Positions 7,790 through 44,357 of a stretch of 64,000 bases of DNA are shown piece after piece (the first letter of the stretch is position 1; every line of letters begins with the position of its first letter). Position numbers and translations under genes: made by a program. The stretch is from an uncultured Neomegalonema sp. (GTDB lineage Bacteria; Pseudomonadota; Alphaproteobacteria; Rhodobacterales; Rhodobacteraceae): contig CALFVD010000013.1 in the NCBI GenBank assembly GCA_937928005.1, forward strand, positions 45,665 to 109,664, read 5' to 3'. The notes below the pieces were generated by a model. It saw only the letters and a program-made list of their open reading frames with translations. It searched no databases and was not told the DNA's origin.

Positions 7790-7795
7790 CGTGCC

Positions 7796-9564: not shown

Positions 9565-9634
9565 CGGCACGGCCTTGACCCCCTTGCCGCCCGCAGGTGC
9601 GCCCGCTACGTTTCGCGCAAAGTGGAGATGCCCT

Positions 9635-10054: not shown

Positions 10055-10806
10055 ATGCACCGGTCAATATCGTCTGCATGAAATGGGGTACGCTCTATGG
10101 CCCCGAATACGTGAACAAGCTGTATGCGATGGCCGCGCGGAACATGGCGCGGCCCTTTCGGTTCGTATGCTTTACCGAGGATGCGAACGGGTTGCGCGAC
10201 GAGGTGACGGTGCGCCCGCTGCCACCCATCGAGATTGATGCGCCCTATGAGCGGACGCCGTGGAAGAAGCTGGCGCTCTATAATGCTGATCTGGGGGATG
10301 TAACGGGGACGGCGTTGTTTTTGGATCTTGATTTGGTGATTATCGGATCGCTGGATCGGTTTTTCGATTTTCCGGGGGATTATTGCGTGATCCGCAATTG
10401 GACGCGGCCCAAGGATATCGTGGGAAATACGTCCGTTTTCCGGTTCGAGATCGGCGCGCATACGGATTTGCTGGATACGTTCCATGCGCAATCGACCCAG
10501 CATTGGGTGGATGAGGTGCGGATTGAACAGACGTTTCTGTCGCGTATCCTGCATGAGCAAGGAAAACTGACATTCTGGCCGGATGGATGGTGCGCGTCGT
10601 TTAAGGTTCATGCATTGCCGGGTGGCTGGAAGTTTCCGCGCCTGCTACTCAATTGGTTCCGCCCGTCGCGGGTGCCTGAAGGGGCAAGCATTGTGGTGTT
10701 TCATGGGCATCCAAACCCGGATGACGCGCTGGTCGGGCGCTGGCCGGGGGGGTGGTACAAGCGGTTGCTGCCCGCGCGCTGGATTGCCGAGTATTGGCGC
10801 GAATGA
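10051..10806 (+). CDS. Glycosyltransferase-like protein
   Basis: MKWGTLYGPEYVNKLYAMAARNM..FRFVCFTEDANGL..ALFLDLDLVIIGSLDRFF (DxD-like DLDL); GTG start at 10051 overlaps the EVE stop. Confidence 0.75.
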   Translation: MNAPVNIVCMKWGTLYGPEYVNKLYAMAARNMARPFRFVCFTEDANGLRDEVTVRPLPPIEIDAPYERTPWKKLALYNADLGDVTGTALFLDLDLVIIGSLDRFFDFPGDYCVIRNWTRPKDIVGNTSVFRFEIGAHTDLLDTFHAQSTQHWVDEVRIEQTFLSRILHEQGKLTFWPDGWCASFKVHALPGGWKFPRLLLNWFRPSRVPEGASIVVFHGHPNPDDALVGRWPGGWYKRLLPARWIAEYWRE

Positions 10807-11702
10807 TGGATGCGCCGGTCGTCAGCTTTCTTTCGGCAGTCTATAACAAGGCGACCTATCTGCCTGCGCTGCTGGCGAATCTACGGGCGCAGGGGGGGAA
10901 GGCTGAGTTTATCTTTGCAGATGATGCCTCGACCGATGGATCGGCGGATTGGTTGGAGGCCGAGGCGTCGCATGATCCGCGCATTCGCGTGATCCGCAAT
11001 ACAGTGAATGCGGGTCCGGCGATCCGGTTCAATCAGGCGGCTGCGGTGGCGCGGGGGGAATGGTTGCTGCCCATCGATGCGGATGATCTTTTATCTGATA
11101 ATGCCGCCGAGATGTTCCTGAAGGTGGCGGACGAGCAGGGGGCTGATCTGATTTTTGCGCGTAGCGAGCGAGGGGCGGAGCCGCGCGATCTTTCTGACCC
11201 ATTGGATATTTCCGTCAGCGATAATCCGCTATTGATGGCGGCGACGCGGAAGATTGTGCGGATGGGGTATCTGGCGCGGGCGTCGGTCTGGCGGGATGCG
11301 GGTGGAGCGGATGAACGTGTCTTTGTGCAGGACCAATCTCTGCCGCTGCGGCTCGGTGCGGCGGCGATGCGGGCAGCGTATATCGAACAAACGGCCTATT
11401 GGCTCAGCGTACAGGATACCGGGAGCCTGTCGCGCAATACGCTACAACAACACCATGATCGGTTTTGGGCCATGACATATATGCTGGAGCGTGATTTGCC
11501 CGATGCAGCGCGCAAAGCCATCGAAGCGCAGCGCGTCTCTGCTTGGTGGAAGATGCACCGCGAAGTTGGGGGTGGGCGGACCAATGCATTGCCTGCTTAT
11601 CTGGCCAATCGCGTGACGGGGTGTGCGCTTTCAACCGCGCAGGTTGCATATGCCAGTGCTGCTTTTGCTAGGCTGTCCGGTGTGCGGCGACCTCGTTTGT
11701 GA
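10803..11702 (+). CDS. Glycosyltransferase family 2
   Basis: PVVSFLSAVYNKATYLPALLANL..FADDASTDGSADWL..PIDADDLL; ATGA overlap with upstream gene. Confidence 0.85.
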   Translation: MMDAPVVSFLSAVYNKATYLPALLANLRAQGGKAEFIFADDASTDGSADWLEAEASHDPRIRVIRNTVNAGPAIRFNQAAAVARGEWLLPIDADDLLSDNAAEMFLKVADEQGADLIFARSERGAEPRDLSDPLDISVSDNPLLMAATRKIVRMGYLARASVWRDAGGADERVFVQDQSLPLRLGAAAMRAAYIEQTAYWLSVQDTGSLSRNTLQQHHDRFWAMTYMLERDLPDAARKAIEAQRVSAWWKMHREVGGGRTNALPAYLANRVTGCALSTAQVAYASAAFARLSGVRRPRL

Positions 11703-11730
11703 TATGCTGTCCGTAAAAGGGGAGGATTTC

Positions 11731-12120
11731 ATGGAGTATATTGCCGTTATTGCCGCTGCGATTTCAGGGTTTGCTGTGGGTGGAGTCTGGTATGGTGCGC
11801 TTGGAGCGCAATGGATGCGGGCCGTTGGGCGCACGAAGGAAGATATCGCGGCGGATAAAAGTCCGCTGCCTTTCATCATCGCCTTTCTCGGCGCTTTGCT
11901 TGCGGCGGGGGTGATGCGGCATATGTTTGTGACCGGCGAAATCGTCGGGGCCATGCGTTGCATGGCCTATGGCGCAGGGATCGGGGCTTTTCTAATCGCA
12001 CCATGGATTGTGCTGCATTATGCCTTCGCGGGCAGGCCAGTCGCGTTATGGGTGATCGATGCGGGGCATACGATAATGGCCTTCGCAGCCATGGGTTTGG
12101 TTCTCGGTCTATTTTATTGA
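11731..12120 (+). CDS. DUF1761-like membrane protein
   Basis: MEYIAVIAAAISGFAVGGVWYGALGAQWMRAVGRTKEDI with four TM segments. Confidence 0.7.
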   Translation: MEYIAVIAAAISGFAVGGVWYGALGAQWMRAVGRTKEDIAADKSPLPFIIAFLGALLAAGVMRHMFVTGEIVGAMRCMAYGAGIGAFLIAPWIVLHYAFAGRPVALWVIDAGHTIMAFAAMGLVLGLFY

Positions 12121-12203
12121 TGCTGTAACTGTCACAGGACTTGCTTGACGAATTCCGTCTCTTTCGTCCTATATCGGGACGCAATGCGGCATGGGGTGAC
12201 GGG

Positions 12204-12914
12204 ATGGAAGAAATGACGCTGACCGGGGCAGCCGGGCTGCTTGGAGTCGCGCTATACGTGATTGGCTATGCGGCCATGCAATTGGGTCTCGTGAGGGGAC
12301 AGACATATATTTATGCAGGGTTGAATCTCTTTGCCGCTCTGTTCGTTCTGTACTCGCTTACAGAGAATTACAATCAGTCATCCGCGATGATCCAGATCAT
12401 GTGGATCATCATCAGCGTCGCTGGGATAACTCGGTTACTGATCGTGGATAAGACGCTGCGGTTTAATGATGAAGAGTGGCGTATTCTTGATGCCGTTGCC
12501 CCTGGCCTAGAGAAGAATCAAGCACGTAAGCTGTTGAATCTTGGCGAATGGCGGGATCTTCCCGTAGGATCGACTGTGATTGCCGAAGGGCGCCCAACGG
12601 AGATTTTAGGCTATTTGTCAAAAGGGGCATTCGTCGTCTCGAAAGGCGATATGCCTATCATGTCGCTTGGGCCGGGCGCTGTGATTGGTGAGATGACCTA
12701 TATGGATGGTACGCCAGCCACCGCGCGGATTGATGTGATGGATGATGCGCGACTATTTGCAATCAACGCCGTGAAACTGCGCGCCTTGATTGAGCGGAAT
12801 GACGATATCGCGAATGCAATCGAGCGCAGCGTTGCGCGCACACTACGTGGGAAGCTACAGGCGACATCGCAGGAATTACGCGATGCAACATCCGGATTTT
12901 TGATCACATCTTGA
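12204..12914 (+). CDS. Three-TM protein with C-terminal cyclic-nucleotide-binding-like domain
   Basis: Three hydrophobic helices, then a CNB-like fold (LPVGSTVIAEGRPTEILGYLSKGAFVV..GAVIGEMTYMDGTPATARIDV); no C-terminal HTH. Confidence 0.7.
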   Translation: MEEMTLTGAAGLLGVALYVIGYAAMQLGLVRGQTYIYAGLNLFAALFVLYSLTENYNQSSAMIQIMWIIISVAGITRLLIVDKTLRFNDEEWRILDAVAPGLEKNQARKLLNLGEWRDLPVGSTVIAEGRPTEILGYLSKGAFVVSKGDMPIMSLGPGAVIGEMTYMDGTPATARIDVMDDARLFAINAVKLRALIERNDDIANAIERSVARTLRGKLQATSQELRDATSGFLITS

Positions 12915-12992
12915 TCTGATCCGCTTTTGCGCCCTTCGATTATAAAAATTCATACCGTTTTGTTTGCGGTATTGGCGATCCGAGACGCCACC

Positions 12993-13076
12993 GCAATTTG
13001 CGACAAACGTGAGCCATGTTTCGCGCCAAGACTTGCACGAAACATGGTGCTTTTTGGTTCACGGCAATCGCAACGC
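12993..13076 (+). repeat. Dispersed nested-palindrome repeat, copy A
   Basis: gcaatttgcgacaaacgtgagccatgtttcgcgccaag..cacgaaacatggtgctttttggttcacggcaatcgcaacgc. Confidence 0.7.
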
Positions 13077-13193
13077 ATATCATCGGTACACTTCTTGCCT
13101 CACAGATAATTGTATCATGTGCGCGGGAACACATTCCGCCGCACACGGTTGAGCAATAGTGAACGCTCAAATGATGTGGGTAGGGAGAAAGCT

Positions 13194-13475
13194 ATGAATA
13201 CGAAATTTATCGCTCTTATCGCAACGGCCATCGCCACGATAGCTGTAAGCCTTCCTGCTAATGCACGGTTGCCCGAAGCTTTTTCTAACCTGCCGAAAGA
13301 GATTATTCGTCCTGCGGTTCACCTGCCGACGGGATGCATGGCGCAGGTCACTCTTCTTGATCGTCATATTGTGACCGCGCATATCATTGATCCTGATTGC
13401 CTGCCGAAGGGTGTGAAAGCACGCCCTATACCCGGTCAGAACGCGGATTTCTCGTTCATTGACGGCGCGCGGTAA
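13194..13475 (+). CDS. Small secreted hypothetical protein
   Basis: Signal peptide MNTKFIALIATAIATIAVSLPANA; ATG preceded by gggaga. Confidence 0.5.
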   Translation: MNTKFIALIATAIATIAVSLPANARLPEAFSNLPKEIIRPAVHLPTGCMAQVTLLDRHIVTAHIIDPDCLPKGVKARPIPGQNADFSFIDGAR

Positions 13476-13478
13476 GGG

Positions 13479-13808
13479 CTATTCCGGCTTTTCTGGCATC
13501 TTTGCCGTGATTTCGATGGATGAATACCATTTCGCCAAATCCGAGATATCCTCGTCGGATAGGCCTTTGGCTACGACGGTCATCATCTCATGCTCGCGTT
13601 TGCCCAAGCGAAACGCTTTTAGCTGGGTTTCGAGGTAGACTTGGCTCTCACCGGCGAGGTGTGGAGCGATGGGGATACGTGCGATTCCATCGAGTCCGTG
13701 ACAGGTGCGGCATTGTTTTGCCTTCTCGCGTCCGGCTTCTAAATCGGCTGCGATAGTGGGGGTTGCCACCATTGATAGTAAAAGAATGGTTGAGAAAACT
13801 GGTTTCAA
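13479..13808 (-). CDS. Class I c-type cytochrome
   Basis: Signal peptide, CRTCHG heme motif, MMTVVAKGLSDEDISDLAKWYSS. Confidence 0.88.
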   Translation of the reverse strand: MKPVFSTILLLSMVATPTIAADLEAGREKAKQCRTCHGLDGIARIPIAPHLAGESQVYLETQLKAFRLGKREHEMMTVVAKGLSDEDISDLAKWYSSIEITAKMPEKPE

Positions 13809-13883
13809 TTTGCGACTCGCGGCTTTTGAGGGAAGGGTCAGATGTGACGCCCGGACAGGCCGGACGCCACGGTGAGCTTTCCG

Positions 13884-15134
13884 TCACTCGTAGCTGATGC
13901 GGTAGATTGCACCGGCCAGATCGTCGGAGACGAGCAGCGAGCCATCGCGAAGCTGCGCCGTATCGACCGGACGACCAAGGTATTCGCCAGTTTCCGCGTC
14001 GAGCCAACCTTCAGCGAAAGGTTTCATCTCCGCCGTGCCGTCTTCAGCGATATGCGTGACCATGACGCGCGCGCCGACCGGCTCGGTACGGTTCCATGAG
14101 CCGTGCTGTGCCGAGAAGATAGCGTTCTTGTATTTGGCGGGGAACATGCGGCCCGTATAGAATGACATGCCTAGATCGGCAGCATGGGCCACTGTCTCAA
14201 CAGCGGGCATTACGATATCATCCGGCGGGGTATCGTCCTTGAACTCGTCGGTGCGCACGTCGCCGCCACCGTACCATGGATGGCCGAAATGCTGACCTGC
14301 TTTGGTCTGGTGGTTCAATTCGCCGGGCGGAATATCGTCACCCATGCCGTCGACCTGATTATCGGTCCACCATAGTTCACCGGTTTCGGGGTGGAAGTCT
14401 TGGCCAACAGAGTTACGCACGCCGTAGGTATAGACCTCGCGGTTCTTGCCGTCGCGATCCATGCGGATGATGCCGCCGATGCCCGTTTCCTTGTATAGTT
14501 CCATCTTCTCCTGTGGGGCCACGTTGAAGGGTTGGCCCAGTGAGATGTAGAGCTTGTTATCCGGGCCAATATCGCAGACGCGGGCGGTGTGGTTATAGCT
14601 GGCTTCTGCTGGCGGAATTAATTCGCCTTCGGCAACAACCTCAAACGCCGCAACATCCGGGCCTTCATAGAAGAACTCGGCGGCGGGGAAGAGGAGGACG
14701 CGGTTCTGTTCAGCAATGAACAGGAAGCCGTCTTTCGAGAAGCATACGCCATTCGGGATGGTGAAATCGATGGAGGGCGCAAATTCCTTCACGTCATCGG
14801 CCACGCGATCCTTGTCGCGGTCGGTGACGACATAGACTTCGTTCTTGCGGGTGCCGACGAAGGTTGCCACACCCTGTGGGCCAACGGCCATATGGCGCGC
14901 ATCGGGCACCACGGCATAGAGTTCGATTTTGAACCCGTCTGGAACGGTTACGTTTTCCAGCACTTTGCGGATCGCGTCAGCGCGTTTTCCTTCCTGCGGG
15001 ATCGGCTCCATCATCGGCGTGCCGGTCTGCTGGAAAGCGGAGAGTTTGTTGAGATTGCCAGCGTTCTGTGCCAGCGCGGGCAGTGCCGCCGCCATTGCGA
15101 CCACAGCGGCCATGGTAGAAAAGCGTTTGAGCAT
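13884..15134 (-). CDS. L-sorbosone dehydrogenase-like PQQ/beta-propeller protein
   Basis: Signal peptide; GFKIELYAVVPDARHMAVGPQG, VYVVTDRDKDRVADDVKEF, YGVRNSVGQDFHPETGELWWTDNQVDGMGDDIPPGELN, FSAQHGSWNR. Confidence 0.82.
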   Translation of the reverse strand: MLKRFSTMAAVVAMAAALPALAQNAGNLNKLSAFQQTGTPMMEPIPQEGKRADAIRKVLENVTVPDGFKIELYAVVPDARHMAVGPQGVATFVGTRKNEVYVVTDRDKDRVADDVKEFAPSIDFTIPNGVCFSKDGFLFIAEQNRVLLFPAAEFFYEGPDVAAFEVVAEGELIPPAEASYNHTARVCDIGPDNKLYISLGQPFNVAPQEKMELYKETGIGGIIRMDRDGKNREVYTYGVRNSVGQDFHPETGELWWTDNQVDGMGDDIPPGELNHQTKAGQHFGHPWYGGGDVRTDEFKDDTPPDDIVMPAVETVAHAADLGMSFYTGRMFPAKYKNAIFSAQHGSWNRTEPVGARVMVTHIAEDGTAEMKPFAEGWLDAETGEYLGRPVDTAQLRDGSLLVSDDLAGAIYRISYE

Positions 15135-18487: not shown

Positions 18488-20296
18488 ATGACCGACCAGA
18501 CGCAAGACCCCGTGACATTTGTTGCGCTCGGTCAGGCCGATAGCACCCTTACACCAGCAAGCCTACAGGCGACAAAGACGTTGACGTATCGTCGGCTGAT
18601 TGCGCTTGGATTATGTGGTGCGACCTTGATTGCTGTGCTGGCCGGAGTGGCGCGGGTCTTCTCGGCAGGGGGGCTGGATGCTCTGGAATATGCGCTGCTT
18701 GCGTGCATTACACTGAGCGCGCCTTGGACGATACTTGGGTTCTGGAATTCGCTGTTGGGCCTATTCCTCGCCCGTCGTGGAGGGGGTGCATTGCCGTTTT
18801 CGGAGGCGATGGAGAGTAATGCGCCGATCCGGTCGCGGGTGGCCGTGGCGATGGCGGTACGAAACGAAGATCCGCAGCGGGCAATCGACCGGTTGCTTGC
18901 CACCCGGCGTAGCCTCGATCAAACGGGGCAGGGGCATCGCGTCGATCTGCATATTATCAGCGATACGAATGATGCGGATGTGGCGGCAGCAGAGGAGCGG
19001 TTGTTCGCGCTACACCGCGATGCACTCGATGGTTTGGGCGTTGCTGGCTATCGCCGTCGTACATCGAACGAAGGCTATAAGGCCGGGAATGTATGGCAAT
19101 TCCTGCATGATCAAGGCAGTCGCTACGACCTGTTCGTGCCCCTTGATGCCGATAGCCTGATGTCGGGTGAGGCGATCATGGATCTCGTGCGTATCGCGGA
19201 GGCGAACCCGCGCATTGGCATCGTGCAGAGCCTCGCGGTGGGCGCGCCCGCCGAAAGCCCGTTTGGACGTATTTTTCAGTTCGGGATGCGTCATGGGATG
19301 CGCGCCTTCACGCTGGGTAGTGCGTGGTGGCAGGGCGATTGCGGGCCGTTCTGGGGACATAATGCGGTGATCCGCGTGGCGGCGTTCAAGGCGCATTGCG
19401 AGCTGCCAAAGCTGGGTGGACGGCCTCCGCTGGGCGGCGATATTCTGTCTCACGACCAGGTCGAAGCGACATTGATGCGACGCGGTGGGTATGAGGTACG
19501 GGTAGTGCCGGTCGAGTGCGAAAGCTTTGAGGAAAACCCCGTCACCATCCTCGATTTCATGACCCGTGAGCAACGCTGGTGTAACGGAAACATGCAATAT
19601 TGGCGGTTGCTCGGAATGAAAGGGCTAACCCCGACGAGCCGGTTCCAGCTTTTTCAGGCCATCATGATGTATCTGAGCGCGCCCGCATGGATGATTCTGA
19701 CGGCGCTGGGCGCGGTAAAGGCGGTGATTGATCCGACGATGACCTTCAACGCGCCGCTTGCCCTTGGCCTGTTCGTGTTGATGGTCGGCATGAGCTTGAC
19801 GCCGAAGATCGTGGGCGCAATCCACGTTATGCTTCAGCCGGGCGGCATGGCTCGCTATGGCGGGGCAAGGCGGTTTGTTGTCGGGCTGGGGATCGAACTG
19901 GTGTTTTCGGTGCTGATGTCGCCGGTCGTGGCCGTGCATCTGACCGTCTTTCTGATCGGGTTGGCCTTTGGTCGCAAGGTTGGTTGGAATGGACAGGTTA
20001 GGGATGCCTACGGGCTGAACTGGTCGACAGCACTGCGCGCGCTCTGGCCGCAGATGGTGTTTGGCGTGACGGTTCTTGCGACGCTGACAATCCATACGCC
20101 CGCCGCTGTTATCTGGGTGTTGCCGGTGGTGCTGGGCCTGCTGTTGGCTGTGCCGTTTGCGGTGTTTACGGCATCGCCCGTTTTGGGGCGGGTGCTGGCG
20201 AAGCGGCGTATTTGTGCGATCCCGGAGGAATTCGAGACCCCGGCGATCCTCACGGATCTGGCTGAGCCGGTGCCTGTGCGTGACCTAGCCGCCTGA
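18488..20296 (+). CDS. mdoH: Glucans biosynthesis glucosyltransferase MdoH/OpgH
   Basis: AVAMAVRNEDPQRAIDRL, FVPLDADSLMSGEAI, GHNAVIRVAAF, REQRWCNGNMQYWRLL with multiple TM helices; start uncertain (ORF opens at 18389). Confidence 0.9.
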   Translation: MTDQTQDPVTFVALGQADSTLTPASLQATKTLTYRRLIALGLCGATLIAVLAGVARVFSAGGLDALEYALLACITLSAPWTILGFWNSLLGLFLARRGGGALPFSEAMESNAPIRSRVAVAMAVRNEDPQRAIDRLLATRRSLDQTGQGHRVDLHIISDTNDADVAAAEERLFALHRDALDGLGVAGYRRRTSNEGYKAGNVWQFLHDQGSRYDLFVPLDADSLMSGEAIMDLVRIAEANPRIGIVQSLAVGAPAESPFGRIFQFGMRHGMRAFTLGSAWWQGDCGPFWGHNAVIRVAAFKAHCELPKLGGRPPLGGDILSHDQVEATLMRRGGYEVRVVPVECESFEENPVTILDFMTREQRWCNGNMQYWRLLGMKGLTPTSRFQLFQAIMMYLSAPAWMILTALGAVKAVIDPTMTFNAPLALGLFVLMVGMSLTPKIVGAIHVMLQPGGMARYGGARRFVVGLGIELVFSVLMSPVVAVHLTVFLIGLAFGRKVGWNGQVRDAYGLNWSTALRALWPQMVFGVTVLATLTIHTPAAVIWVLPVVLGLLLAVPFAVFTASPVLGRVLAKRRICAIPEEFETPAILTDLAEPVPVRDLAA

Positions 20297-33685: not shown

Positions 33686-35188
33686 TCAACAATTCAGCGT
33701 TTCACGCCAATTACTTACTAATCGCTTTGCGAGCATGTTTGAAACTGCGGGATTTGAGCTTTCGCGATTCAGGATGAAAAATGCGATCTGGTCTGTATTT
33801 CCTTCGATTAGATGCAGCATAATCAGATGATGGCCGAGGGTTAGTGTTGTCTCTTGCAGTGTTTCATCGCCAAGCAATCGCATCATCCGAATATCGGTGT
33901 CAATAACAGCCGAGAATATCTCGATGCATTCTTCGGCTTTAATTGTGTCTTCGGCAAAGCATGTGATCAGTTCTTTTGTACTGGCATTCATTACACCCGC
34001 CGTTTTAAGGCCGGTCATCTCCGCTATCGAACGCTTCAGCGTTTCGGCGGGGGTTTCCGGTACGGGCTCGGGGGTAATCGGCGCTGGTTCGGGTTCAGGT
34101 TCGACATATCGCGTTGTCACTTCCTCGATCGGCGCTTCTGGTGCCGAATCCGGGGCAGGCATAGCAACGCGATCAACGATTGGCGCAGCGGCGTCATCAA
34201 CATTGCCTCGGCGTCCAAAAGATTTGGGCACAGTTCTATTTTTAAAGAATGTTGACTCGATCAACGGCGCTTGCGTTTTCGCCTCTTCCTGAGCCGCAAT
34301 TTCATTCAAGGTTGCATCCATTTCCGATTCGCGCTTTGGCATCATCGGTGCAGGCGAAACTATCGCATCGGCGGGTAAGCCTTCACCGATTTGGTCGCCC
34401 CCGCGTCGGCCAAATTTGGGATCATCGAACGCCGATAGAAGGTCATCATCGGCAAAGCTCAGATCACCGAGCAAATCCTGCGCAATCTCGACCAGAGCCT
34501 GCCCGCCGGTCTCCGCCCATAGCTTATCGCTGGTCTGACAATCATTAAGCCGCTGTGTGGAGGCTTGCATGAAGACGATTTCGGTAAAGAAATCAGCGGC
34601 CTCACGCTGAAGGCGCGTTTCGATTTTGTCCAGATCCTCCGCCGAGCGCAATTTATCCGCGCGTGAGATCGCCAGAACGGAGCGTTTTGCGATGTCTTTG
34701 GGCAATGTCTGTATGATCGATTTCTCTGACAGCCGCCATGTCTGCGATGCGATTGTCACCCAGACGAGCAAGTTCGCCTCGCGCATGATGGCGCTATGTT
34801 TGGGGTCGATGCCATTCGTGGGATTGAAGGGCACCTCGATGATTTCGACGGCTTCGAGGCCCGGCATCGGCGTATGGATCACGATGTTTGCCACATCATC
34901 GCGCTCCACCACGTCCTCAAAGGAATCAAGCTCGTAGGATGCGCCATTGACCAGTTCAGCAACCAATACCGTCTTGGATGCATGGCGGATGCGCACGAGC
35001 GGGCGGCTGAAGAATCCCGGATCATTGGGCAGAAACGGGCGGCGCATGATGGCGTTCACGACGCTTGATTTGCCGACCTCGAATTCCCCACATACCACAA
35101 TCGTTTCTCGCTCGATTGCGTGCTTTGCCACCGTGCCGGAGGTCGTTTGAAGAGCCAAATTCATTGCCTGTATCCTCTCTTGGCTCAT
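33686..35188 (-). CDS. Dynamin-like/TRAFAC GTPase B
   Basis: P-loop GEFEVGKSSVVNAIM; ISRAD at the G4 position; G3 position reads EVPFNPTNG instead of DxPG; Pro/Glu-rich linker then helical C-terminus; 4-bp overlap with upstream gene. Confidence 0.75.
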   Translation of the reverse strand: MSQERIQAMNLALQTTSGTVAKHAIERETIVVCGEFEVGKSSVVNAIMRRPFLPNDPGFFSRPLVRIRHASKTVLVAELVNGASYELDSFEDVVERDDVANIVIHTPMPGLEAVEIIEVPFNPTNGIDPKHSAIMREANLLVWVTIASQTWRLSEKSIIQTLPKDIAKRSVLAISRADKLRSAEDLDKIETRLQREAADFFTEIVFMQASTQRLNDCQTSDKLWAETGGQALVEIAQDLLGDLSFADDDLLSAFDDPKFGRRGGDQIGEGLPADAIVSPAPMMPKRESEMDATLNEIAAQEEAKTQAPLIESTFFKNRTVPKSFGRRGNVDDAAAPIVDRVAMPAPDSAPEAPIEEVTTRYVEPEPEPAPITPEPVPETPAETLKRSIAEMTGLKTAGVMNASTKELITCFAEDTIKAEECIEIFSAVIDTDIRMMRLLGDETLQETTLTLGHHLIMLHLIEGNTDQIAFFILNRESSNPAVSNMLAKRLVSNWRETLNC

Positions 35189-37296
35189 GCCGCCGCTTTC
35201 ATCGCTTCCGATAGGAGATAATTCTCTTTGGCGGCGATGATCCGAAGACGGTGATCAATCACTTCGATGTCGCTTTGCAGGCGGTTCAGCATCTTCTCCC
35301 GATGCGCATCGCTGGCATTGTCACTCAGCGCCAGTTGATCGGCGCGCGACTGCTCATGGCGGTTATCAAGGGATTGCTCGACGATCTTTTTGATCAGGCT
35401 AAGTCGTTGTTTCCCGGACAAAACGCGATTGGTCATCGTTTCGGTATATGCTTCGATCATTTTTGTTGTTGCGGGATACACCTCGGCGGCAATGACTTTT
35501 TTCAGTGCTTCGATGGTTTTGGACATGTCGACATTCGTGTTCTTCTTCCAAAACGACCAATTGCGTTTTGAGACGAAATTCAGCGACAGCATCTTGCGTG
35601 ATGTTGTGAAGGTCACGGCTACGGTTTCTCCGGGCAGCAAATCCATCGAAATCCGAGACTCTAGACCCTCGGTGATCTGTTTTCCGGTTTGCAACGCGCG
35701 ATTCAGGCCATTCTGAAGAATATCATCGATACGATTGCGCACGGCTTCATATTGAACCGCTACACAATCCTCCATCGCGACGCGCAGGGGGAGGAGTTCA
35801 ATGCTCAAGTCTTCATCGATATCGGCATTGCCATTGAAAATCTCTTCGATCTTGGCGCTTTGATCCCGGATGAATTTTCCTGTTTCCACATCCATCTCTT
35901 GCTGGATCGCAACCCATGCATCGTTGATGATCGCATCAAGCTTATCATCCACATTGGAGAGTAGTTTTTCGAGGGCATTATCGACTTCACTGGCAATCAG
36001 TAGGTCGTCCTCGATGGTTTCCTTGTATTCCGAGATTCGGCCCGCGCCATAGCTTTCGATTTGATCCATGAGTTGATACCGCTTCCGTTGTGAAACGGCT
36101 TTGACGGCGGAGATTTGCGTGATGGCTTCAATTTTGGCGCGGTCGATAAAGCGCGCCCCGGATCCATTCGTAATTGCCATGGAGATCGCGTTCTTGACCT
36201 CTTCCAAACCAGAGGCGGCATAGAGTTTTTCGCGCGCGGTCTGGCCCGATGATGTGCGGTGCTCGCTCAGGAATATCTCAAAATTTGGATCATCAAGAAC
36301 TTCGGCGATATCCGCGTCCTTGGCATCTTCATTGATGGCCAATTCGGCCCAGCGCGCACTACCAAAGATAATCGAAAACTGCCCTTCGGGGATGGCATTC
36401 GTCAGGCGGTTTGTGATGTCCCGGACGACCCGCGCGATTCGCTTTGGATAGTTTTCAAGCTCATCAATGCGATTGATGTAGATGATGATATCCTTGTCGC
36501 CCTGCATGGCCACCATGCGGATCAACGCGATATCCACCTCGGTCAATGCCTGATGCGCCGATAGGGTCATCAAAAAGATGTCTGACTGATCCAAACTCTG
36601 ACAGGTAAATTCGTCCCGCACGAGGAACGGATCATTCACGCCGGGGGTGTCCGTGATGATCGTCGGGACGGCATAATCATCCGACCGCATAAACAGGTTC
36701 GCGGCTCGGGTGATGGATGCATAGCGCCCTAATGATTCGCGCTCAAGGCCCGCATCTGCGCCCGGTCCAGCACAGACATACCGTTGCAACAGATCGGCGG
36801 ACAGCATGTCGTATTCGTGTTTGGAGCCGAGCAGCGCATGGTAATAGCGGCCAAGGCGTCTCTCCGCATCGCGCCGCATTCCTTCGGTTTGTTCACGCAG
36901 CACTTCTGAGTCAAAGCCGGGCAGATTCTCTTCTGCCGCATCGCGCAAGCGCGTATCGCCATTGATGATACGGTCCCAATCTTCCTCGTTGAAAAAGTCG
37001 AAACGAGCGCCGCATTCCGGGTCTTCGGGAATGTTGATCCTCATGCTCGTGACAACGGAAGTCCACGGGTTCACATCCGATGGCAGGAACCCGATATTGC
37101 CGATCAAAGCATTGAGCGTCGATGATTTACCCGCTTTGACCTGACCGATGGCCGCAATCCGCGCCTTCCAGTCATTGAGGTCTTCGAGTTGCTTCTCGAA
37201 TGCCCCGACGAATTCGCCCGTTGATACCTCGACAAGATCGCCAAGCACTTTGCGAAGTCCATGGAGTTGAGCGTGATGTGATTGACCAATTCGCAT
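35185..37296 (-). CDS. Dynamin-like GTPase A
   Basis: P-loop GQVKAGKSSTLNALIG, switch II ITDTPGVNDPF, G4 INRIDELE; long helical C-terminus with NWSFWKK segment. Confidence 0.88.
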   Translation of the reverse strand: MRIGQSHHAQLHGLRKVLGDLVEVSTGEFVGAFEKQLEDLNDWKARIAAIGQVKAGKSSTLNALIGNIGFLPSDVNPWTSVVTSMRINIPEDPECGARFDFFNEEDWDRIINGDTRLRDAAEENLPGFDSEVLREQTEGMRRDAERRLGRYYHALLGSKHEYDMLSADLLQRYVCAGPGADAGLERESLGRYASITRAANLFMRSDDYAVPTIITDTPGVNDPFLVRDEFTCQSLDQSDIFLMTLSAHQALTEVDIALIRMVAMQGDKDIIIYINRIDELENYPKRIARVVRDITNRLTNAIPEGQFSIIFGSARWAELAINEDAKDADIAEVLDDPNFEIFLSEHRTSSGQTAREKLYAASGLEEVKNAISMAITNGSGARFIDRAKIEAITQISAVKAVSQRKRYQLMDQIESYGAGRISEYKETIEDDLLIASEVDNALEKLLSNVDDKLDAIINDAWVAIQQEMDVETGKFIRDQSAKIEEIFNGNADIDEDLSIELLPLRVAMEDCVAVQYEAVRNRIDDILQNGLNRALQTGKQITEGLESRISMDLLPGETVAVTFTTSRKMLSLNFVSKRNWSFWKKNTNVDMSKTIEALKKVIAAEVYPATTKMIEAYTETMTNRVLSGKQRLSLIKKIVEQSLDNRHEQSRADQLALSDNASDAHREKMLNRLQSDIEVIDHRLRIIAAKENYLLSEAMKAAA

Positions 37297-37403
37297 ATCG
37301 ACCGTTCTTCGTTTAAGGGACGCGGGTGGTGGGCTACCAATGTGGAAAGAGTATATTTTAACTGCTCAAGAAATCGTTCAGAGCCGTCGAGAGATTGCTT
37401 GGT

Positions 37404-38312
37404 TCAGCGCATTATCGCCTCACAAATCTGGACAATTTTCTTGGCCGTAGGTCGTTCTTCACGGCGCGGGCACAGGGCTTTCGATATGCTCGACAGGAAA
37501 AGCGCGGGGAAGCGGTCTGCATTTCGCAGCAATGGCTCGTTCTCTTCCGCTTGGTTCAACCGCTTGTTGGCGGGTTCCGGTGCGGTGCCTGAAACCATAT
37601 GATACAAGGTTGCGCCGAATGAATAGATATCACATTCATCCGTCGGATGAAGACGGCGGTTATAGAGTTCCGGTGCCGAATATCCGTCTTTAACGGCGCG
37701 TAGCCTGTTCGGTGGACGCCGGGTCGCTTCGCTTCCATCATTGAACAATGATGAACCAAAATCGATCAGCACAGGATCGACCGCCCCCCGCATGATGATG
37801 TTATCCGGCGCGATATCGCCATGGACCACCCCATTCGAGTGCAGGTAGGCAAGGGCGCTGGCGATACGTGATGCGATCTGAACGATTTGCCCCGGCTCCA
37901 GCCATTCCGGGTTATGCGCCATGATATCCTGCAAATCCGCGCCTTCGATGTATTCGAGAACGATGTACCCCGTTTCATTTTCCTCAAAGAAATCCAGCAC
38001 GCGCATAAGATTCGGGTGGCTCATTAGACCCGGCCACCATCCTTCTTCATTGAATAAAATGCGGAGTTCTCTGATTTCATTGTGAAATTCTGAAGGGCAC
38101 TGAACTGACAAATCCGTGCCGCGTCGTGAAAAGCCCTCTACGAAAAACTCCTTAATCGCATAGGTCTTCCCCGCCGCATTGTACGCTTTGTACACGATCC
38201 CAAAGCCGCCATTGCTAAGCGCCGACTCGATAATGAACGTACCGCCGCGCAATATTGTGCCGCCGCGCAGATCGTCATTCAGTTCGAGCAGGCTTTCTGC
38301 GGTGGCGCCCAA
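37404..38312 (-). CDS. Soluble eukaryotic-type Ser/Thr protein kinase
   Basis: LSNGGFGIVYKA, YAIKEF, HGDIAPDNI, DFGSSLF, GYSAPE, DIYSFGATLYHMVSG; no TM segment. Confidence 0.93.
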   Translation of the reverse strand: MGATAESLLELNDDLRGGTILRGGTFIIESALSNGGFGIVYKAYNAAGKTYAIKEFFVEGFSRRGTDLSVQCPSEFHNEIRELRILFNEEGWWPGLMSHPNLMRVLDFFEENETGYIVLEYIEGADLQDIMAHNPEWLEPGQIVQIASRIASALAYLHSNGVVHGDIAPDNIIMRGAVDPVLIDFGSSLFNDGSEATRRPPNRLRAVKDGYSAPELYNRRLHPTDECDIYSFGATLYHMVSGTAPEPANKRLNQAEENEPLLRNADRFPALFLSSISKALCPRREERPTAKKIVQICEAIMR

Positions 38313-38351
38313 AGTTTATCTCCTCACGTCGCGTAATCGACGGTGGTTGGG

Positions 38352-39128
38352 TCAGAGTCGCTCGCGTAGCGCACTGAGCCGCAATTCCAGTTCATCGAAT
38401 TGATCCGGGTATTCAGACATAACCAAACACCCTTCTCCGCCGAGCCAGGCCATTGCCGCCCCCCGGCAATCCCCGCCATCAACAACGATGAAGCGCAGAT
38501 CGGTGTCTTTACCGTTCAATTCCTCGCGCAGCGCGGCGACGCATCCATCGATCCATGCCGGGTCAATATTGGATGTTGCGGGGATATCGATTTCATCGGC
38601 GCTACCAAAACGCGCGCGCGGGTGGTCGGGAAACGTATCGTAGAATCCCTGAATCACCGCCGCATCCCCCTCATCATTCTGAGAGAGGGAGACATGATCG
38701 CAGAGCATCGATGCAGGATACCCCGAATGGGTAATGGTGCCGAGCGCATGGGGCAGGAATGTCTGTTCGATTATAATCCGCTTATCGGCAACGATCTTGA
38801 GCAACACCGAGGTAAAGGCCCGCGCAAATGAATCGTAATCCCCCTCGCAGACCGTCGCTTGCGGGGATTGCTGCCCTTCCCACAGGTTTTGTGGGTGGAC
38901 ATCGGCGACCTTGATGACGCGGCGGTTACGCGCAATCACCGACAGGCGCACACCATCCTCCGAGCGGATCGTGATCCGCCGTGGTAGGACCGTGTTGACG
39001 AGGGTGGCCTCCAGTTCGGCACAGGCGGTTTCCGTATCCATCTCTCTAAAGCCGGACGGACCACCATCACCATCGATAAGCGCGGTGATACTGTCGAAGG
39101 AGGCATGAAGTTTAGCGGAACTTGGCAC
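38352..39128 (-). CDS. Hypothetical protein (cassette component, family not recognised)
   Basis: 258-aa ORF in tight co-directional arrangement (3-bp gap to upstream ORF, 39 bp to kinase). Confidence 0.65.
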   Translation of the reverse strand: MPSSAKLHASFDSITALIDGDGGPSGFREMDTETACAELEATLVNTVLPRRITIRSEDGVRLSVIARNRRVIKVADVHPQNLWEGQQSPQATVCEGDYDSFARAFTSVLLKIVADKRIIIEQTFLPHALGTITHSGYPASMLCDHVSLSQNDEGDAAVIQGFYDTFPDHPRARFGSADEIDIPATSNIDPAWIDGCVAALREELNGKDTDLRFIVVDGGDCRGAAMAWLGGEGCLVMSEYPDQFDELELRLSALRERL

Positions 39129-39131
39129 GAT

Positions 39132-39530
39132 CTACGCCGCCTCCATCGTCATGGGAAGTTGAAAGATTTCCGAAGCGATTTCCATGAGATAGCTCCGGCT
39201 TGGGGATTTGCTGAATAGGCAAACCAAGGCATCATCCCCCTTGCGTAGGTCTTGAATGACGACCAGCACATCTCTTTTACGGACCCGCGTAATCGACACG
39301 AGTTGCGGTTCATTGGCGGATGCGCGAAAGGCCATTGCCGACGGGGATTTCAACGCCTCAATGGCATCCGCACCGACCTGCTGTACGATTGATTGCGACG
39401 TGGGCGACGCAGAGCTTTTCGAGAAGACAAGACCGGTCTCTTGATCGATTAGCATTGCAAGTTTGCAATCCTTGAATCGCTCATGCAAAGCATCGATCAT
39501 ATCGAGCGTCTTTTGCCTAAGATCATCCAT
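39132..39530 (-). CDS. Roadblock/LC7-like protein
   Basis: CKLAMLIDQETGLVFSKSS..LVSITRVRKRDVLVVIQDLRKGDDALVCLFSKSPSRSYLMEIASEIF; beta-strand/DxxTGL pattern parallels the 42825-43181 protein. Confidence 0.5.
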   Translation of the reverse strand: MDDLRQKTLDMIDALHERFKDCKLAMLIDQETGLVFSKSSASPTSQSIVQQVGADAIEALKSPSAMAFRASANEPQLVSITRVRKRDVLVVIQDLRKGDDALVCLFSKSPSRSYLMEIASEIFQLPMTMEAA

Positions 39531-39656
39531 CGTATTGACCGCCTCAATTGCCTTATGATTCAGTAATTTTACAGTAACTTGAATAAAAAACTAATTAATA
39601 ACTTTGCCTCTGCATTGGAAATCAATCTGTGCATTGAATTACCCATGTTCTGATAT

Positions 39657-41054
39657 TTAAGCGACACTCACCTGAGTATTAGTTGGTTCGTCCTCGATGA
39701 TATCATTGAGCTCCAGCGTTTCCTCGTCTTCAATGGGCAGGCGCCGCCAAAAATCGATGGTCATTTGTTTTACGATATCGGCGGCGTCTTGTGCTGATCG
39801 CTCATCGGATTCATAGCCCAGCAATCCAATCAGTTCTTCTGCTTCCCTGATTTGGATGGCAACTTGATGATGTTCCGATGTAAGTTTTAACCCGGATTTC
39901 ATATAATTGTTTAGGGTGTTGAGAGATTTCAACATCTCTTCAAACAGTGGCGCATATCCCTCTACGCCCACATGATCAATTACGTCTTTACAGGCTTGTA
40001 TATGGCTCAAGAGTGTCGTTTTTACTTCGCTCACACTTGGTGCATGGATGAAGCGATCCGAGCCGCCCTCTTGTTCCGGTGCAGGGCCGCCGCCGTCTTC
40101 ATACGCACCCTCATCTTCACCATCGTCATCTAATAACAGACGCTCGAATTCTGAGGCAGATGCGCGGATATCGGCGGTTTGTTTACGTTTGGCTTCCGTT
40201 TCCTGAATCGTATCAAGTTCACCGAGAAGATATTGAGCCTGCGCAATCAGGGATGCTTCATGTTCCGATGTCTTTGCGATCAGCGTTTTCAACAGGGTGC
40301 CGCCGCCACTCGCCGCAAAGCCATCAACGTCGATCACTGATCCGTCCGGGGCCGACAGGCGCGCGGTATCCACGGAAATACTGACCATCGCATCGAAATA
40401 CTCGCAGGCTGTGGCGCATTTTTCTTCAAAGATCTGATTTTCTTGGTCAGTGATAACGAAATCTGCGCCCGTTAGGATCAGAATGCTTCGCTCTTTCTGA
40501 CGTTCAGGTATGCTCTTCCAAAGGCGCAATTCATCGGCGCTCCATGGCGTTTTTGCATTTGAACACCAAGCCACGATATCGGCGCTTCGTATCATCTGAA
40601 ACAGTTGATGCGTCCGGCGTTCTTCACCATCGTAACTTGGATAGATCAGGAACCCGATTTCCATCAGGATTGGGCGCGGCAATTCGAGGTCGATCAAGGT
40701 GGCATCCGCATATGCCGCCGCAATATCGCATCCCTCATATTCTGTCCGGGACGAGCCGGAAACAGCCAAAGTCCGCGCCTCTCGGCCATAGCGTACCCGT
40801 ATCGGCGGGCATGTATCTATATCATGGGGCGCGGCGAATAGGTCGGTTCCGAGTAGGAATTCCGCCAGCATCCCATGCTCAGACCCTTTTGGTCCGGCAA
40901 TGACTACCCGTATTGGCGCGGATAATTGGTCGATGGTCGTGGATAGCAGCGCCCGGTGCTCTGACTTCACCAAAGATGCATCATCGCCAAAAGTATCGCG
41001 AACGGCTTGTAAGCGACTGAGCAGGGATGTCTTTTCATTTTCGAGCGGCATCAC
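39657..41054 (-). CDS. Dynamin-like pseudo-GTPase (degenerate P-loop)
   Basis: IRVVIAGPKGSEHGMLAEFLLGTDLFAA..DTCPPIRVRYG aligns in position with the P-loop region of GTPase B but lacks GK[ST]; ILILTGADFV at the G4 position. Confidence 0.6.
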   Translation of the reverse strand: MMPLENEKTSLLSRLQAVRDTFGDDASLVKSEHRALLSTTIDQLSAPIRVVIAGPKGSEHGMLAEFLLGTDLFAAPHDIDTCPPIRVRYGREARTLAVSGSSRTEYEGCDIAAAYADATLIDLELPRPILMEIGFLIYPSYDGEERRTHQLFQMIRSADIVAWCSNAKTPWSADELRLWKSIPERQKERSILILTGADFVITDQENQIFEEKCATACEYFDAMVSISVDTARLSAPDGSVIDVDGFAASGGGTLLKTLIAKTSEHEASLIAQAQYLLGELDTIQETEAKRKQTADIRASASEFERLLLDDDGEDEGAYEDGGGPAPEQEGGSDRFIHAPSVSEVKTTLLSHIQACKDVIDHVGVEGYAPLFEEMLKSLNTLNNYMKSGLKLTSEHHQVAIQIREAEELIGLLGYESDERSAQDAADIVKQMTIDFWRRLPIEDEETLELNDIIEDEPTNTQVSVA

Positions 41055-41824
41055 GCTAGAACCTTCACTATGGACATCGAAACATTGTCCTGCTCATCGT
41101 GGGCGAGGTGATCGATTGCTGATTTAAACTGGTGAGCGATGATCTGACTGGGGGCATCAATGAAACCGTTGATGATCTCGATGATTTCTTGCTGCGATAG
41201 GTATTCCAGACCATCGCTGGCCACGATCAACACATCGCCGGGCAGCAGCGTCAAACCGTCTTCCGTACAATCGAGCTTGTTAATGCGCTGGCCAGTTAAC
41301 GCAGAGGTCAGCACGCTACGATCTGGGTGATCTTCGGCTTCGCAAGGCGACAGCTTTCCTTGCATGACCATCGCATCAATCTCTGCCGCCATCGAATGAT
41401 CGGCATTGAGACGAAAAATCTTCTGGTCCCGATAGAGCAGTAGCAGCGAATCGCCCACCGATGCCCAGTAGAGATGTTGGTCAAAATTCACCGCGCCGAT
41501 GACGGTCGCGCCCATGCCCTGATATTCTGGCATTTCGCTGATATGCGTACCAATGGCCGCATTGGCCTTTTCGACGGCGCGTTTCAGGACGCTATAGGTG
41601 CGTCCCTTGAATTCTGGTAGGTTGCATGTGCTTTCGAGTAAGGTTTCCTGCACCGCGCTAACGCAAATCTTGCTGGCGATATCGCCGCCCGCATGGCCGC
41701 CCATCCCATCGGACAGAATCGTAAAGCCGAATTCCGCACCGACCGGATAGCATGAGACAACCGCATCTTCTTGATAAGTGCGCTGTCCCTGCATCAATAA
41801 TGTGGCGGAATCGAAATGCGGCAT
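41051..41824 (-). CDS. PP2C-type Ser/Thr protein phosphatase
   Basis: RTYQEDAVV, ILSDGMGGHAGGDIAS, YQGMGATVIG, ASVGDSLLLLYR, IVASDGLEYLS, DEQDNVSMSIV. Confidence 0.93.
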   Translation of the reverse strand: MPHFDSATLLMQGQRTYQEDAVVSCYPVGAEFGFTILSDGMGGHAGGDIASKICVSAVQETLLESTCNLPEFKGRTYSVLKRAVEKANAAIGTHISEMPEYQGMGATVIGAVNFDQHLYWASVGDSLLLLYRDQKIFRLNADHSMAAEIDAMVMQGKLSPCEAEDHPDRSVLTSALTGQRINKLDCTEDGLTLLPGDVLIVASDGLEYLSQQEIIEIINGFIDAPSQIIAHQFKSAIDHLAHDEQDNVSMSIVKVLA

Positions 41825-41831
41825 CGACGGA

Positions 41832-42704
41832 TTATCCCGCAAACAGAACATCGTCGTCCTGTGTTCCATCGGTCCAATTGAATGTCTCATCGCACAGGAT
41901 GGTCAGTCGCAGGCTCGTCTCGCCCATGCTGATAATATCGCCATCACTCAATTGTTCTGTCGTCAGCAGCGGCTTGCTATTCAGGCGCACGATATTCGCC
42001 TTACCACCATGGCCGACATAGAACAGATGGCTGTCAGGATCATAAGCGATTGAGGCATGATTAGAGCGCGAGATGCTCAGATCACCGAAATCGAGGGCAA
42101 CCGTTTCTTCGGCATCACGCCCAATCTGCGACACGCCAGAGCGCAGCGCAAAGCATGTTCCGCGCCCTGGACCTTTGGTAACAACCAGCCAACCAACGGG
42201 GAAAGTCACCCGCGCAGATGGCATAGCAGGGGCCGTGTTTTCCATCACGCGGTGCTGAGCATCGGCATCATCATTCGCGTTCAGCAGCCGGGTCTTCACC
42301 CGACCGGCGCTCTTGCGCGAAGGCATGGGCACGGGTTTTACGGGCTGAGGATTATCCAGCTCATCGGCGGTTCGCCACATTGATGCGGCACCGGGTGCCA
42401 CAGGTTTCGGCTCACTCGCCGCATCGTCCAAAAAGGCGGCGATTGCGGCATCTTCATCATCGTCCAATTCGGCCACAAGGCTTTCGAGCGATGGATCAAG
42501 ACTGCGCCGAGCAGAGGCGGCCTGTGGACGTTTTGGTATGGGCAGTGCGCGCCGCCGTTCCGGCTGTGCCGGAGCCGCCGGAACATCAATAGCGGCCTTA
42601 AGGTCGCGGTGACGCGCGGAAGGATCAAGGCTACGTGTTACCGGTGGATTCTCATCCTCCCGAGAAGTTTTTACAATTTCTGCGAGATTCGAGAATAATT
42701 TCAT
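41832..42704 (-). CDS. FHA domain protein
   Basis: C-terminal FHA: GRGTCFALRSGVSQIGRDAEETVALDFGDLSISRSNHASIAYD..VRLNSKPLLTTEQLSDGDIISMGETSLRL. Confidence 0.9.
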   Translation of the reverse strand: MKLFSNLAEIVKTSREDENPPVTRSLDPSARHRDLKAAIDVPAAPAQPERRRALPIPKRPQAASARRSLDPSLESLVAELDDDEDAAIAAFLDDAASEPKPVAPGAASMWRTADELDNPQPVKPVPMPSRKSAGRVKTRLLNANDDADAQHRVMENTAPAMPSARVTFPVGWLVVTKGPGRGTCFALRSGVSQIGRDAEETVALDFGDLSISRSNHASIAYDPDSHLFYVGHGGKANIVRLNSKPLLTTEQLSDGDIISMGETSLRLTILCDETFNWTDGTQDDDVLFAG

Positions 42705-42824: not shown

Positions 42825-43181
42825 TTAGACGCTGACAGAGCTTTCAACAGTCTTCACGGCGAGGCGTGCCATGCCGAGATTGGCCGATTTCTTTTCGAGA
42901 GCGACATACATGAAGATCGCAGGGTTGCTCGCGAGCGGACGGATCAGGTGATACTGCGTGCCCAGCGTGATCAGGATATCCTCGATGGCATCTTTGAGGT
43001 TCAGAGCGGCCATGGCGGCGTTCTTCGCACGAACGACTTCGGTGTTAGCAGCGCCAGCCGCTTCGAGGTCGAAACGCGCGCTACCGCCTTCGGAGGCGAG
43101 CATCAGGCCGGATTCACTGTCGACGAGGCAGGCGCCGATGAAGCCAGCAATATTGTTCAGTGCAGAAATGTCAGTAGACAT
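42825..43181 (-). CDS. Roadblock/LC7-domain-like protein
   Basis: GFIGACLVDSESGLMLASEGGSARFDLEAAGAANTEVVRAKNAAMAALNLKDAIEDILITLGTQYHLIRPL. Confidence 0.8.
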   Translation of the reverse strand: MSTDISALNNIAGFIGACLVDSESGLMLASEGGSARFDLEAAGAANTEVVRAKNAAMAALNLKDAIEDILITLGTQYHLIRPLASNPAIFMYVALEKKSANLGMARLAVKTVESSVSV

Positions 43182-43586: not shown

Positions 43587-44357
43587 ATGATGGACAGCGT
43601 TCTGGAGTACGAGATTGTCGAAAAAATCACTGCAAAAAATGCAACCACATTCCGCGCCAATATCGACGTACAATTACTCCAGCGCCTCTCACAGAGCTTC
43701 GATGCCGGTGCGGCGTCCTTCTGGTTTCGATTCTTCGGTGAGGTCAATTTTCATGCGCAACGATTCGACGGCCTGACCGATGTGACATTTCACATCGCGC
43801 TGACGGATGAAGCGCGGGAGCAACGATCACTTGCCGCCCCGGTCATCACCCGGTTGAGTAAGCGCGAGGCATGGGGTGATCATGTGCCACTGCTCGATTC
43901 CCCCAATGTCGATGCCATCTACATCACATCCGAGAATTTGAAGGCCGATGAGGTGCCCCGTATCCCGACCAAACCCGAAGCCGAACGATTGGCGGCAATC
44001 CGCGCCGCATTCGCTGATATGCTGGATGCGGATAATCTCGACGAGGGTATGCAGGCCGATCTGGCAACCCGGATCGTGTCGGACTTGCTGATCGGTGAAT
44101 TCGATTCCGATGCGCGCGGGGCGATGGCAACGGTCGTGGGTGTGTGGGTGGGGGATAGGGTGTCCGAGCTTACCGGACTAAAATGGCATTGCATTGATGA
44201 GGCGGAAACCGTCTCCTATTGCATCCATGATCCGGTCAGGAAAGTTTCGTGCTTCCCCTTCGATGCGATGAACAAGCGCCTGAATGCGCGCGAAGCATTT
44301 CAACCGCACCTGCTCGCCGAAACTTTTGCTAAGGCTTTGAAGTCGATGCCAAATTGA
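43587..44357 (+). CDS. Hypothetical protein with DUF3806-like C-terminus, divergent from cassette
   Basis: ARGAMATVVGVWVGDRVSELTGLKWHCIDEAETVSYCIHDPVRKVSCFPFDAMNKRL pattern. Confidence 0.55.
   Translation: MMDSVLEYEIVEKITAKNATTFRANIDVQLLQRLSQSFDAGAASFWFRFFGEVNFHAQRFDGLTDVTFHIALTDEAREQRSLAAPVITRLSKREAWGDHVPLLDSPNVDAIYITSENLKADEVPRIPTKPEAERLAAIRAAFADMLDADNLDEGMQADLATRIVSDLLIGEFDSDARGAMATVVGVWVGDRVSELTGLKWHCIDEAETVSYCIHDPVRKVSCFPFDAMNKRLNAREAFQPHLLAETFAKALKSMPN

What the first reader, a model, noticed from the sequence alone, without database searches (positions are those of the whole stretch)
33686..41054. Three GTPase-fold paralogs at graded stages of catalytic decay
GTPase A has intact motifs (GQVKAGKSS, DTPG, NRID). 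GTPase B keeps the P-loop (GEFEVGKSS) but reads EVPFNPTNG where DxPG is expected, and SRAD at G4. The 39657-41054 protein has GPKGSEHG instead of GxxxxGK[ST] and TGAD at G4, so it probably does not bind nucleotide normally. One active, one binding-competent and one dead paralog in a single operon suggests an obligate hetero-oligomer with regulatory subunits.
Basis: partly seen in the sequence, partly recalled or inferred. Interest (0 to 1): 0.75.

Follow-up and report, generated by a model that had tools for sequence, protein, structure and literature searches.

The report
Bacterial dynamin operon with pseudo-GTPases
This stretch encodes a bacterial dynamin-type membrane GTPase together with two related partner proteins that have lost parts of the GTP-hydrolysing machinery in a way that is conserved across many marine and sludge bacteria, which points to a built-in mix of working and 'dead' GTPases controlled by a kinase and a phosphatase.

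Summary
GTPase A (35185-37296, -) is a full bacterial dynamin. GTPase B (33686-35188) and the 39657-41054 protein (here GC) are related, mostly stalkless dynamin G domains. Profile searches match A to subunit DLP1, and B/GC to subunit DLP2, of the Campylobacter dynamin heterotetramer. The defects are inherited, not recent decay. B belongs to a 33-member clade with the P-loop intact in 33/33 but DxPG in 0/33; its partner GA forms an exactly matching clade with intact motifs. GC-type proteins lack DxPG in 54/54. The seven-member Neomegalonema GC clade containing the window protein lost G1, G3 and G4, while relatives with the same C-terminal domain keep intact motifs. Corrections: this is a dynamin system; A is only a distant relative of B and GC; SRAD in B is not a defect; the window is an unusual locus joining an A-B pair of one module type to the FHA-PP2C-GC-kinase set of another. 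Relatives are nearly all Rhodobacteraceae (35 of 150 sampled genomes). A hetero-oligomer with pseudo-GTPase subunits under phospho-control is the best reading; no interaction or enzymology was tested. New variant of a known kind.

The parts
35185..37296 (-). GA (GA1 type): full bacterial dynamin-like protein, 703 aa, intact G1 GQVKAGKS, G3 DTPGVND, G4 NRID; predicted long helices after the G domain with a low-confidence tip at about residues 540-590, possibly a membrane-binding paddle
   Evidence: G1, G3 and G4 residues invariant in 47 homologs; 5OWV chain A and BDLP; model; Foldseek best hit BDLP 1.2e-16; 160 of 161 GA-assigned proteins keep G1 and G3
33686..35188 (-). GB (GB1 type): G-domain partner, 500 aa; P-loop and G4 kept, G3 DxPG replaced (EVPFNPTNG). 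P/E-rich linker and a C-terminal region without a known relative. Start overlaps the GA stop by 4 bp
   Evidence: 5OWV chain C, 1e-26; clade; G1 33/33, G3 0/33, G4 32/33
39657..41054 (-). GC (GCw clade): pseudo-GTPase, 465 aa; no P-loop, no DxPG, degenerate G4; dynamin-type G domain flanked by helices, plus a C-terminal helical domain. Start overlaps the PP2C stop by 4 bp
   Evidence: 5OWV chain C 7.5e-13; G1, G3, G4 all 0/7 in its clade; C-terminal domain shared with intact relatives
41051..41890 (-). PP2C/PPM-type Ser/Thr phosphatase (Stp1-like)
   Evidence: NF033484 6.8e-42, below the curated cut-off; 51 of 52 loci with this PP2C also have a GC-type gene
41832..42704 (-). FHA-domain protein (phosphothreonine reader)
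37404..38312 (-). Hanks-type Ser/Thr protein kinase, 302 aa; AIKEF, HGDIAPDN and DFG present
   Evidence: (Pkinase 8e-36)
38352..39128 (-). conserved module protein of unknown function, 258 aa; recognised relatives only in Neomegalonema-type modules. A separate cluster of about 260-aa proteins occupies a similar place in 23 other modules
42825..43181 (-). 118-aa protein ('RB118'), much more conserved than the GTPases (45-80% identity in 23 relatives), found at dynamin loci

Best explanation
The operon encodes a phospho-regulated, hetero-oligomeric bacterial dynamin. GA is the catalytic, membrane-acting subunit (G domain plus long stalk). GB is a G-domain partner that can probably still bind nucleotide but, lacking the DxPG switch-II motif, probably cannot couple binding to normal hydrolysis; it would pair with GA across the nucleotide pocket, as dynamin G domains do, and stimulate or gate GA. 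GC is a pseudo-GTPase that has kept the fold and protein-contact surfaces, not the nucleotide site, and would serve as scaffold or adaptor between the dynamin pair and the kinase / PP2C / FHA switch. SHOWN here: the motifs, their conservation by clade, the dynamin folds, the matching of GA and GB/GC to different subunits of a solved heterotetramer, matching GA1 and GB1 clades, and operon linkage. INFERRED: physical complex, nucleotide binding and hydrolysis status, membrane action, and phosphorylation as the control.
For: Homology: profile GA matches 5OWV chain A (732 aa, taken as Cj-DLP1) 2e-16; profiles GB and GC match 5OWV chain C (614 aa, taken as Cj-DLP2) 1e-26 and 7.5e-13. Chains are named from the subunit masses in PMC6104087, which shows a 2:2 heterotetramer with assembly-stimulated GTP turnover. 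Fold: GC model against IniA, BDLP and Mfn1, E about 1e-12 to 1e-10; GA model against BDLP 1e-16. Conserved state, 209 G domains: GB2 G3 102/102; GB1 G1 33/33, G3 0/33, G4 32/33; GC plus GCw G3 0/54; GCw G1 0/7. GA keeps G1 and G3 in 160/161. The GA1 clade (SH-aLRT 100) and the GB1 clade (97) contain exactly the same six gene pairs. An element after G3 (Trp in 208 of 209, followed by W/F and E) persists even where nucleotide motifs are gone. GC and its intact relatives GCi share the C-terminal domain, E down to 6e-20. PP2C and GC-type genes co-occur in 51 of 52 loci. The same 35 of 150 family genomes hit with GC and with GA queries.
Against: No interaction, nucleotide-binding or hydrolysis data exist. 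GB and many relatives have no stalk, so the Campylobacter tetramer geometry, which relies on the DLP2 stalk for its central dimer, cannot apply directly, and the paper states that the DLP1 domain that holds DLP2 is specific to Campylobacter. Proteins can bind nucleotide through non-canonical sites, so motif loss is not proof of inactivity. In most GC proteins outside the window's clade the P-loop is intact (37/47), so GC function cannot in general depend on loss of nucleotide binding. The trees were quick searches with long branches, and GC is not strictly one clade in them.
Confidence: 0.6

Rival explanations
1. GB1 and GC are not subunits of one complex with GA. GC works only with the kinase/PP2C/FHA set as a signalling adaptor, and GB1 with GA1 as a separate dynamin pair; the window merely has both side by side.
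For: The window is the only one of the dynamin loci examined in which GA1 occurs with PP2C; elsewhere GA1-GB1 usually sits next to GA2-GB2 or alone, and GC sits with KIN-FHA-PPM-GA2-GB2. GC-type genes are present in 51/52 PP2C loci.
Against: GC is also next to dynamin pairs lacking PP2C nearby in Neomegalonema-type loci (L039, L040, L117, L119, L121-L123); GC shares its C-terminal domain with GCi proteins, several of which still sit beside a GA of their own.
Confidence: 0.25
2. GB1 and GC are active nucleotide-binding enzymes whose catalytic residues moved elsewhere (for example the Asp-to-Glu change at G3), so the system is a set of divergent but working GTPases.
For: GB1 keeps G1 in 33/33 and G4 in 32/33, and places Glu where the G3 Asp would be; most non-window GC proteins keep G1 and a TKxD-like G4.
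Against: The window GC clade lacks a canonical G1, G3 and G4 (0/7 each); one GC (L059) lacks the P-loop altogether. The Gly of DxPG is missing throughout GB1 and GC.
Confidence: 0.12
3. Random, recent decay of redundant paralogs (pseudogenisation).
For: The genome holds a second related module on contig 144, so redundancy exists.
Against: All ORFs are open and full-length; the same losses are shared across seven GCw and 33 GB1 orthologs from many genera; the fold, Trp element and C-terminal domain stay conserved.
Confidence: 0.03

Closest known systems
Campylobacter jejuni Cj-DLP1/Cj-DLP2 heterotetramer (PDB 5OWV/5OXF; PMC6104087)
   Same: Adjacent dynamin genes; GA resembles the DLP1 subunit and GB/GC the DLP2 subunit by profile search.
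   Different: In Cj-DLP2 the DTPG motif is intact (VDTPG in the alignment); GB and many relatives have only a G domain; a third subunit without a nucleotide site and a kinase/PP2C/FHA set are added here.
Nostoc BDLP1 and mycobacterial IniA (bacterial dynamins)
   Same: GA and GC models hit these folds best.
   Different: Those are stalked GTPases with working nucleotide sites (own knowledge and PMC6715688 abstract); GC has lost its site.
LeoA/LeoB/LeoC of enterotoxigenic E. coli
   Same: GA matches PADLOC LeoBC and LeoA profiles (1.6e-10, 1.5e-8); multi-gene dynamin set.
   Different: Weak similarity; no kinase/PP2C/FHA or pseudo-GTPase series known to me there.
Pseudo-GTPase domains of p190RhoGAP (PMC10211241) and catalytically inactive septin groups (own knowledge)
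   Same: Mix of GTP-binding but non-hydrolysing and non-binding GTPase folds kept as protein-interaction parts.
   Different: Unrelated families; only the working principle is shared.

Membership tests
Dynamin superfamily (GA) | Dynamin-type G domain with G1, G3, G4 | tested here: met
   Dynamin_N 1.1e-11; motif residues invariant in 47 homologs
Dynamin superfamily (GA) | Long helical neck/trunk after the G domain | tested here: met
   Model pLDDT 85.5, helices 379-538 and 591-702; Foldseek BDLP 1.2e-16
Dynamin superfamily (GA) | Membrane binding and assembly-stimulated GTPase | not testable with these tools
   Requires biochemistry; a possible paddle at about residues 540-590 is inference only
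Dynamin superfamily (GB) | Dynamin-type G domain | tested here: met
   Dynamin_N 3.8e-10; 5OWV chain C 1.1e-26
Dynamin superfamily (GB) | Intact G3 DxPG | tested here: not met
   EVPFNPTNG; 0/33 in its clade
Dynamin superfamily (GB) | Long stalk/trunk | tested here: not met
   Clade members are as short as 249-250 aa; the window's extra C-terminus is P/E-rich linker plus a region without a match. Judged by length and sequence; no model of GB was made
Dynamin superfamily fold (GC) | Dynamin-type G-domain fold | tested here: met
   HHalign to GB 6e-43; Foldseek top hits all dynamin superfamily
Functional GTPase (GC) | P-loop GxxxxGK[ST], DxPG, [NT]KxD | tested here: not met
   All three absent in the window protein and in 7/7 of its clade
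Paired bacterial DLP of the Cj-DLP1/2 kind | Two different adjacent DLP subunits matching DLP1 and DLP2 | tested here: met
   4-bp gene overlap
Paired bacterial DLP of the Cj-DLP1/2 kind | Stable hetero-oligomer | not testable with these tools
   No complex prediction or assay available; matching clades are indirect
Roadblock/LC7 proteins (132 aa and 118 aa) | Robl_LC7 profile match | tested here: inconclusive
   No Robl_LC7 hit in 29 members, none in 21 related genomes; HHalign probability 18% and 5% against a small Robl set
PADLOC-catalogued anti-phage defence systems | Strong match of system-specific proteins | tested here: not met
   Only the kinase domain and distant Leo/mad8 hits for GA; GB, GC, PP2C, FHA none

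The most novel reading that the evidence does not exclude
A Rhodobacteraceae-wide dynamin machine built from one catalytic dynamin, a G-domain partner that has lost its switch-II motif and acts as a non-hydrolysing GTP-bound activator, and a nucleotide-free pseudo-GTPase hub that couples it to Ser/Thr phosphorylation: a bacterial dynamin controlled by dedicated dead GTPase subunits.
Probability: 0.4. Interest if true: 0.8.

Novelty: new variant of a known kind. Interest (0 to 1): 0.62.

Why it matters
Bacterial dynamins usually come in pairs, but why the partner is needed is not settled. Here nature has made the separation-of-function mutants: partners that lost G3 only (GB1), G3 with or without G1 (GC), or everything (GCw), alongside sister lineages with intact motifs (GB2, GCi) and nearly always an intact GA. 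That makes the role of each G domain in a hetero-dynamin directly testable, and it links bacterial dynamins to Hanks-kinase / PP2C / FHA signalling, a connection for which I found no paper in the searchable open-access library.

Tried and rejected
Pseudogene or recent decay: rejected by ortholog conservation. GC not a GTPase fold: rejected. SRAD as a defect in GB: rejected, it is a common family form. Small proteins as roadblock/LC7: not supported. Known defence system: not supported. C-terminal region of GB1 related to that of GC: no (HHalign probability 0.3%). L051 ORF at 18506-19768 as a missed GC: no, it looks like a secreted LysM/solute-binding protein. A first genome-contig scan with window GC alone found nothing, because GC is too divergent; the GA alignment worked. 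A class-wide GC profile search gave many P-loop-only chance hits outside the family, not relatives. Literature searches for bacterial dynamin with FHA/PP2C/kinase, pseudo-GTPase, or Rhodobacterales returned nothing on this system; phage-shock neighbourhoods checked, no dynamin mentioned.

Full report
OBSERVATION. The three ORFs and motifs are as described. Genes on the - strand run 118-aa protein (43181-42825), FHA (42704-41832), PP2C (41890-41051), GC (41054-39657), 132-aa protein (39530-39132), 258-aa protein (39128-38352), kinase (38312-37404), GA (37296-35185), GB (35188-33686). PP2C/GC and GA/GB overlap by 4 bp, so the set looks like an operon. Pfam finds Dynamin_N in GA and GB, Pkinase, PP2C and FHA, and nothing convincing in GC or the small proteins.

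WHAT THE THREE ARE. GC is homologous to GB: phmmer about 1e-5 in both directions, profile-profile E = 6e-43 over 232 columns. GC and GA share only a P-loop-region match at profile level (probability 90%). The AlphaFold model of GC (30-sequence alignment, pLDDT 87) shows a G domain flanked by helices and a C-terminal helical domain; Foldseek top hits are IniA, BDLP, mitofusin-1 and Cj-DLP (TM-scores 0.3-0.5 and large rmsd because whole multi-domain chains were compared). GA models as a full dynamin with long helices after the G domain and hits BDLP at 1e-16. Profile searches of the PDB send GA to 5OWV chain A and GB and GC to chain C, the two different subunits of the Campylobacter dynamin heterotetramer; I assign chain A (732 aa) to DLP1 and chain C (614 aa) to DLP2 from the masses given in PMC6104087.

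ARE THE DEFECTS CONSERVED? Genes were assigned by iterated profile searches, G domains aligned and motifs counted. Four patterns appear. GB2, the ordinary partner: G1 101/102, G3 102/102, G4 101/102. GB1, the window's GB type: G1 33/33, G3 0/33, G4 32/33, with Glu where the G3 Asp should be. GC: G1 37/47, G3 0/47. GCw, the window's GC and six Neomegalonema-type orthologs: 0/7 for each of G1, G3, G4. A further group, GCi, largely carries the GC C-terminal domain (E down to 6e-20) but keeps G1 in 20/20 and G3 in 15/20, and in the Ruegeria-type loci sits beside a GA gene of its own. As Cj-DLP2 also has DTPG, intact motifs are the likely ancestral state and the losses are derived. GA keeps G1 and G3 in 160 of 161. 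Counts treat related sequences as separate; some are close relatives.

PARTNERSHIP. On trees built separately, the six GB1 proteins of the first set form one clade (SH-aLRT 97) and their six neighbouring GA proteins form one clade (100), with the same members. This matches co-inheritance as a pair but is not proof of contact. The trees were quick searches with some long branches. A short element after G3 (Trp in 208/209 sequences, then Trp/Phe and Glu) is kept even when the nucleotide motifs are not; I take it as a candidate interface, by inference.

MODULE TYPES. (i) kinase-FHA-PP2C-GC-GA2-GB2-small proteins (Yoonia, Loktanella and others); (ii) GA2-GB2-GA1-GB1, often with the 118-aa protein (Thioclava, Roseivivax and others); (iii) GA2-GB2-small protein-GA-GCi (Ruegeria); (iv) GCw-GA2-GB2-132 aa-258 aa-GA1-GB1 in Neomegalonema-type genomes, including a second locus in the window's own genome (contig 144; L039). 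The window is the only locus examined in which a GA1 pair occurs with PP2C; it looks like a merger of types i and ii/iv. PP2C loci contain a GC-type gene in 51 of 52 cases.

DISTRIBUTION. 35 of 150 sampled genomes of the same family have the system, the same 35 with a GC query and a GA profile. In a class sample of 289, full matches occur only in that family. Among GTDB-species contigs at least 498 stretches encode GA relatives; the best 80 are almost all Rhodobacteraceae or related. Plasmid-borne relatives exist in Leisingera, Ruegeria and Rhodobacter.

MECHANISM (committed view, about 0.6). GA hydrolyses and acts on membrane; GB pairs with GA through its G domain, binds but probably does not turn over GTP, and gates GA; GC is a pseudo-GTPase scaffold that ties the pair to the phospho-switch. 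All steps beyond sequence, fold and gene linkage are inferred.

LIMITS. No complex prediction and no biochemistry; GB was not modelled (two structure jobs were available and went to GC and GA); the 132-, 258- and 118-aa proteins are unassigned; roadblock identity was tested and not supported. The paper library lacks most subscription journals, so absence of a prior description is weak evidence.

Noticed in passing
42825-43181 (-): A 118-aa protein far more conserved (45-80% identity in 23 relatives) than the neighbouring GTPases, and found beside dynamin pairs in many Rhodobacteraceae; no Pfam match, fold unknown.
   Followed up: partly
L039 (contig 144 of the window's genome), 6201-14649: A second module of the same genome with GC, GA2-GB2, the 132- and 258-aa proteins and GA1-GB1, but no kinase, FHA or PP2C gene nearby, suggesting the window's kinase/phosphatase may serve both.
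   Followed up: partly
L059 5349-6275 (+): A GC ortholog in which the P-loop region appears missing outright while the rest of the G domain and the C-terminal domain remain.
   Followed up: partly
L193 (Filomicrobium MAG), L177, L166: GA-like dynamins in records not named as Rhodobacteraceae; possible transfer or misbinning.
   Followed up: no
43587-44357 (+): Divergently oriented 256-aa gene with a weak DUF3806 match (E 0.009) next to the operon.
   Followed up: no
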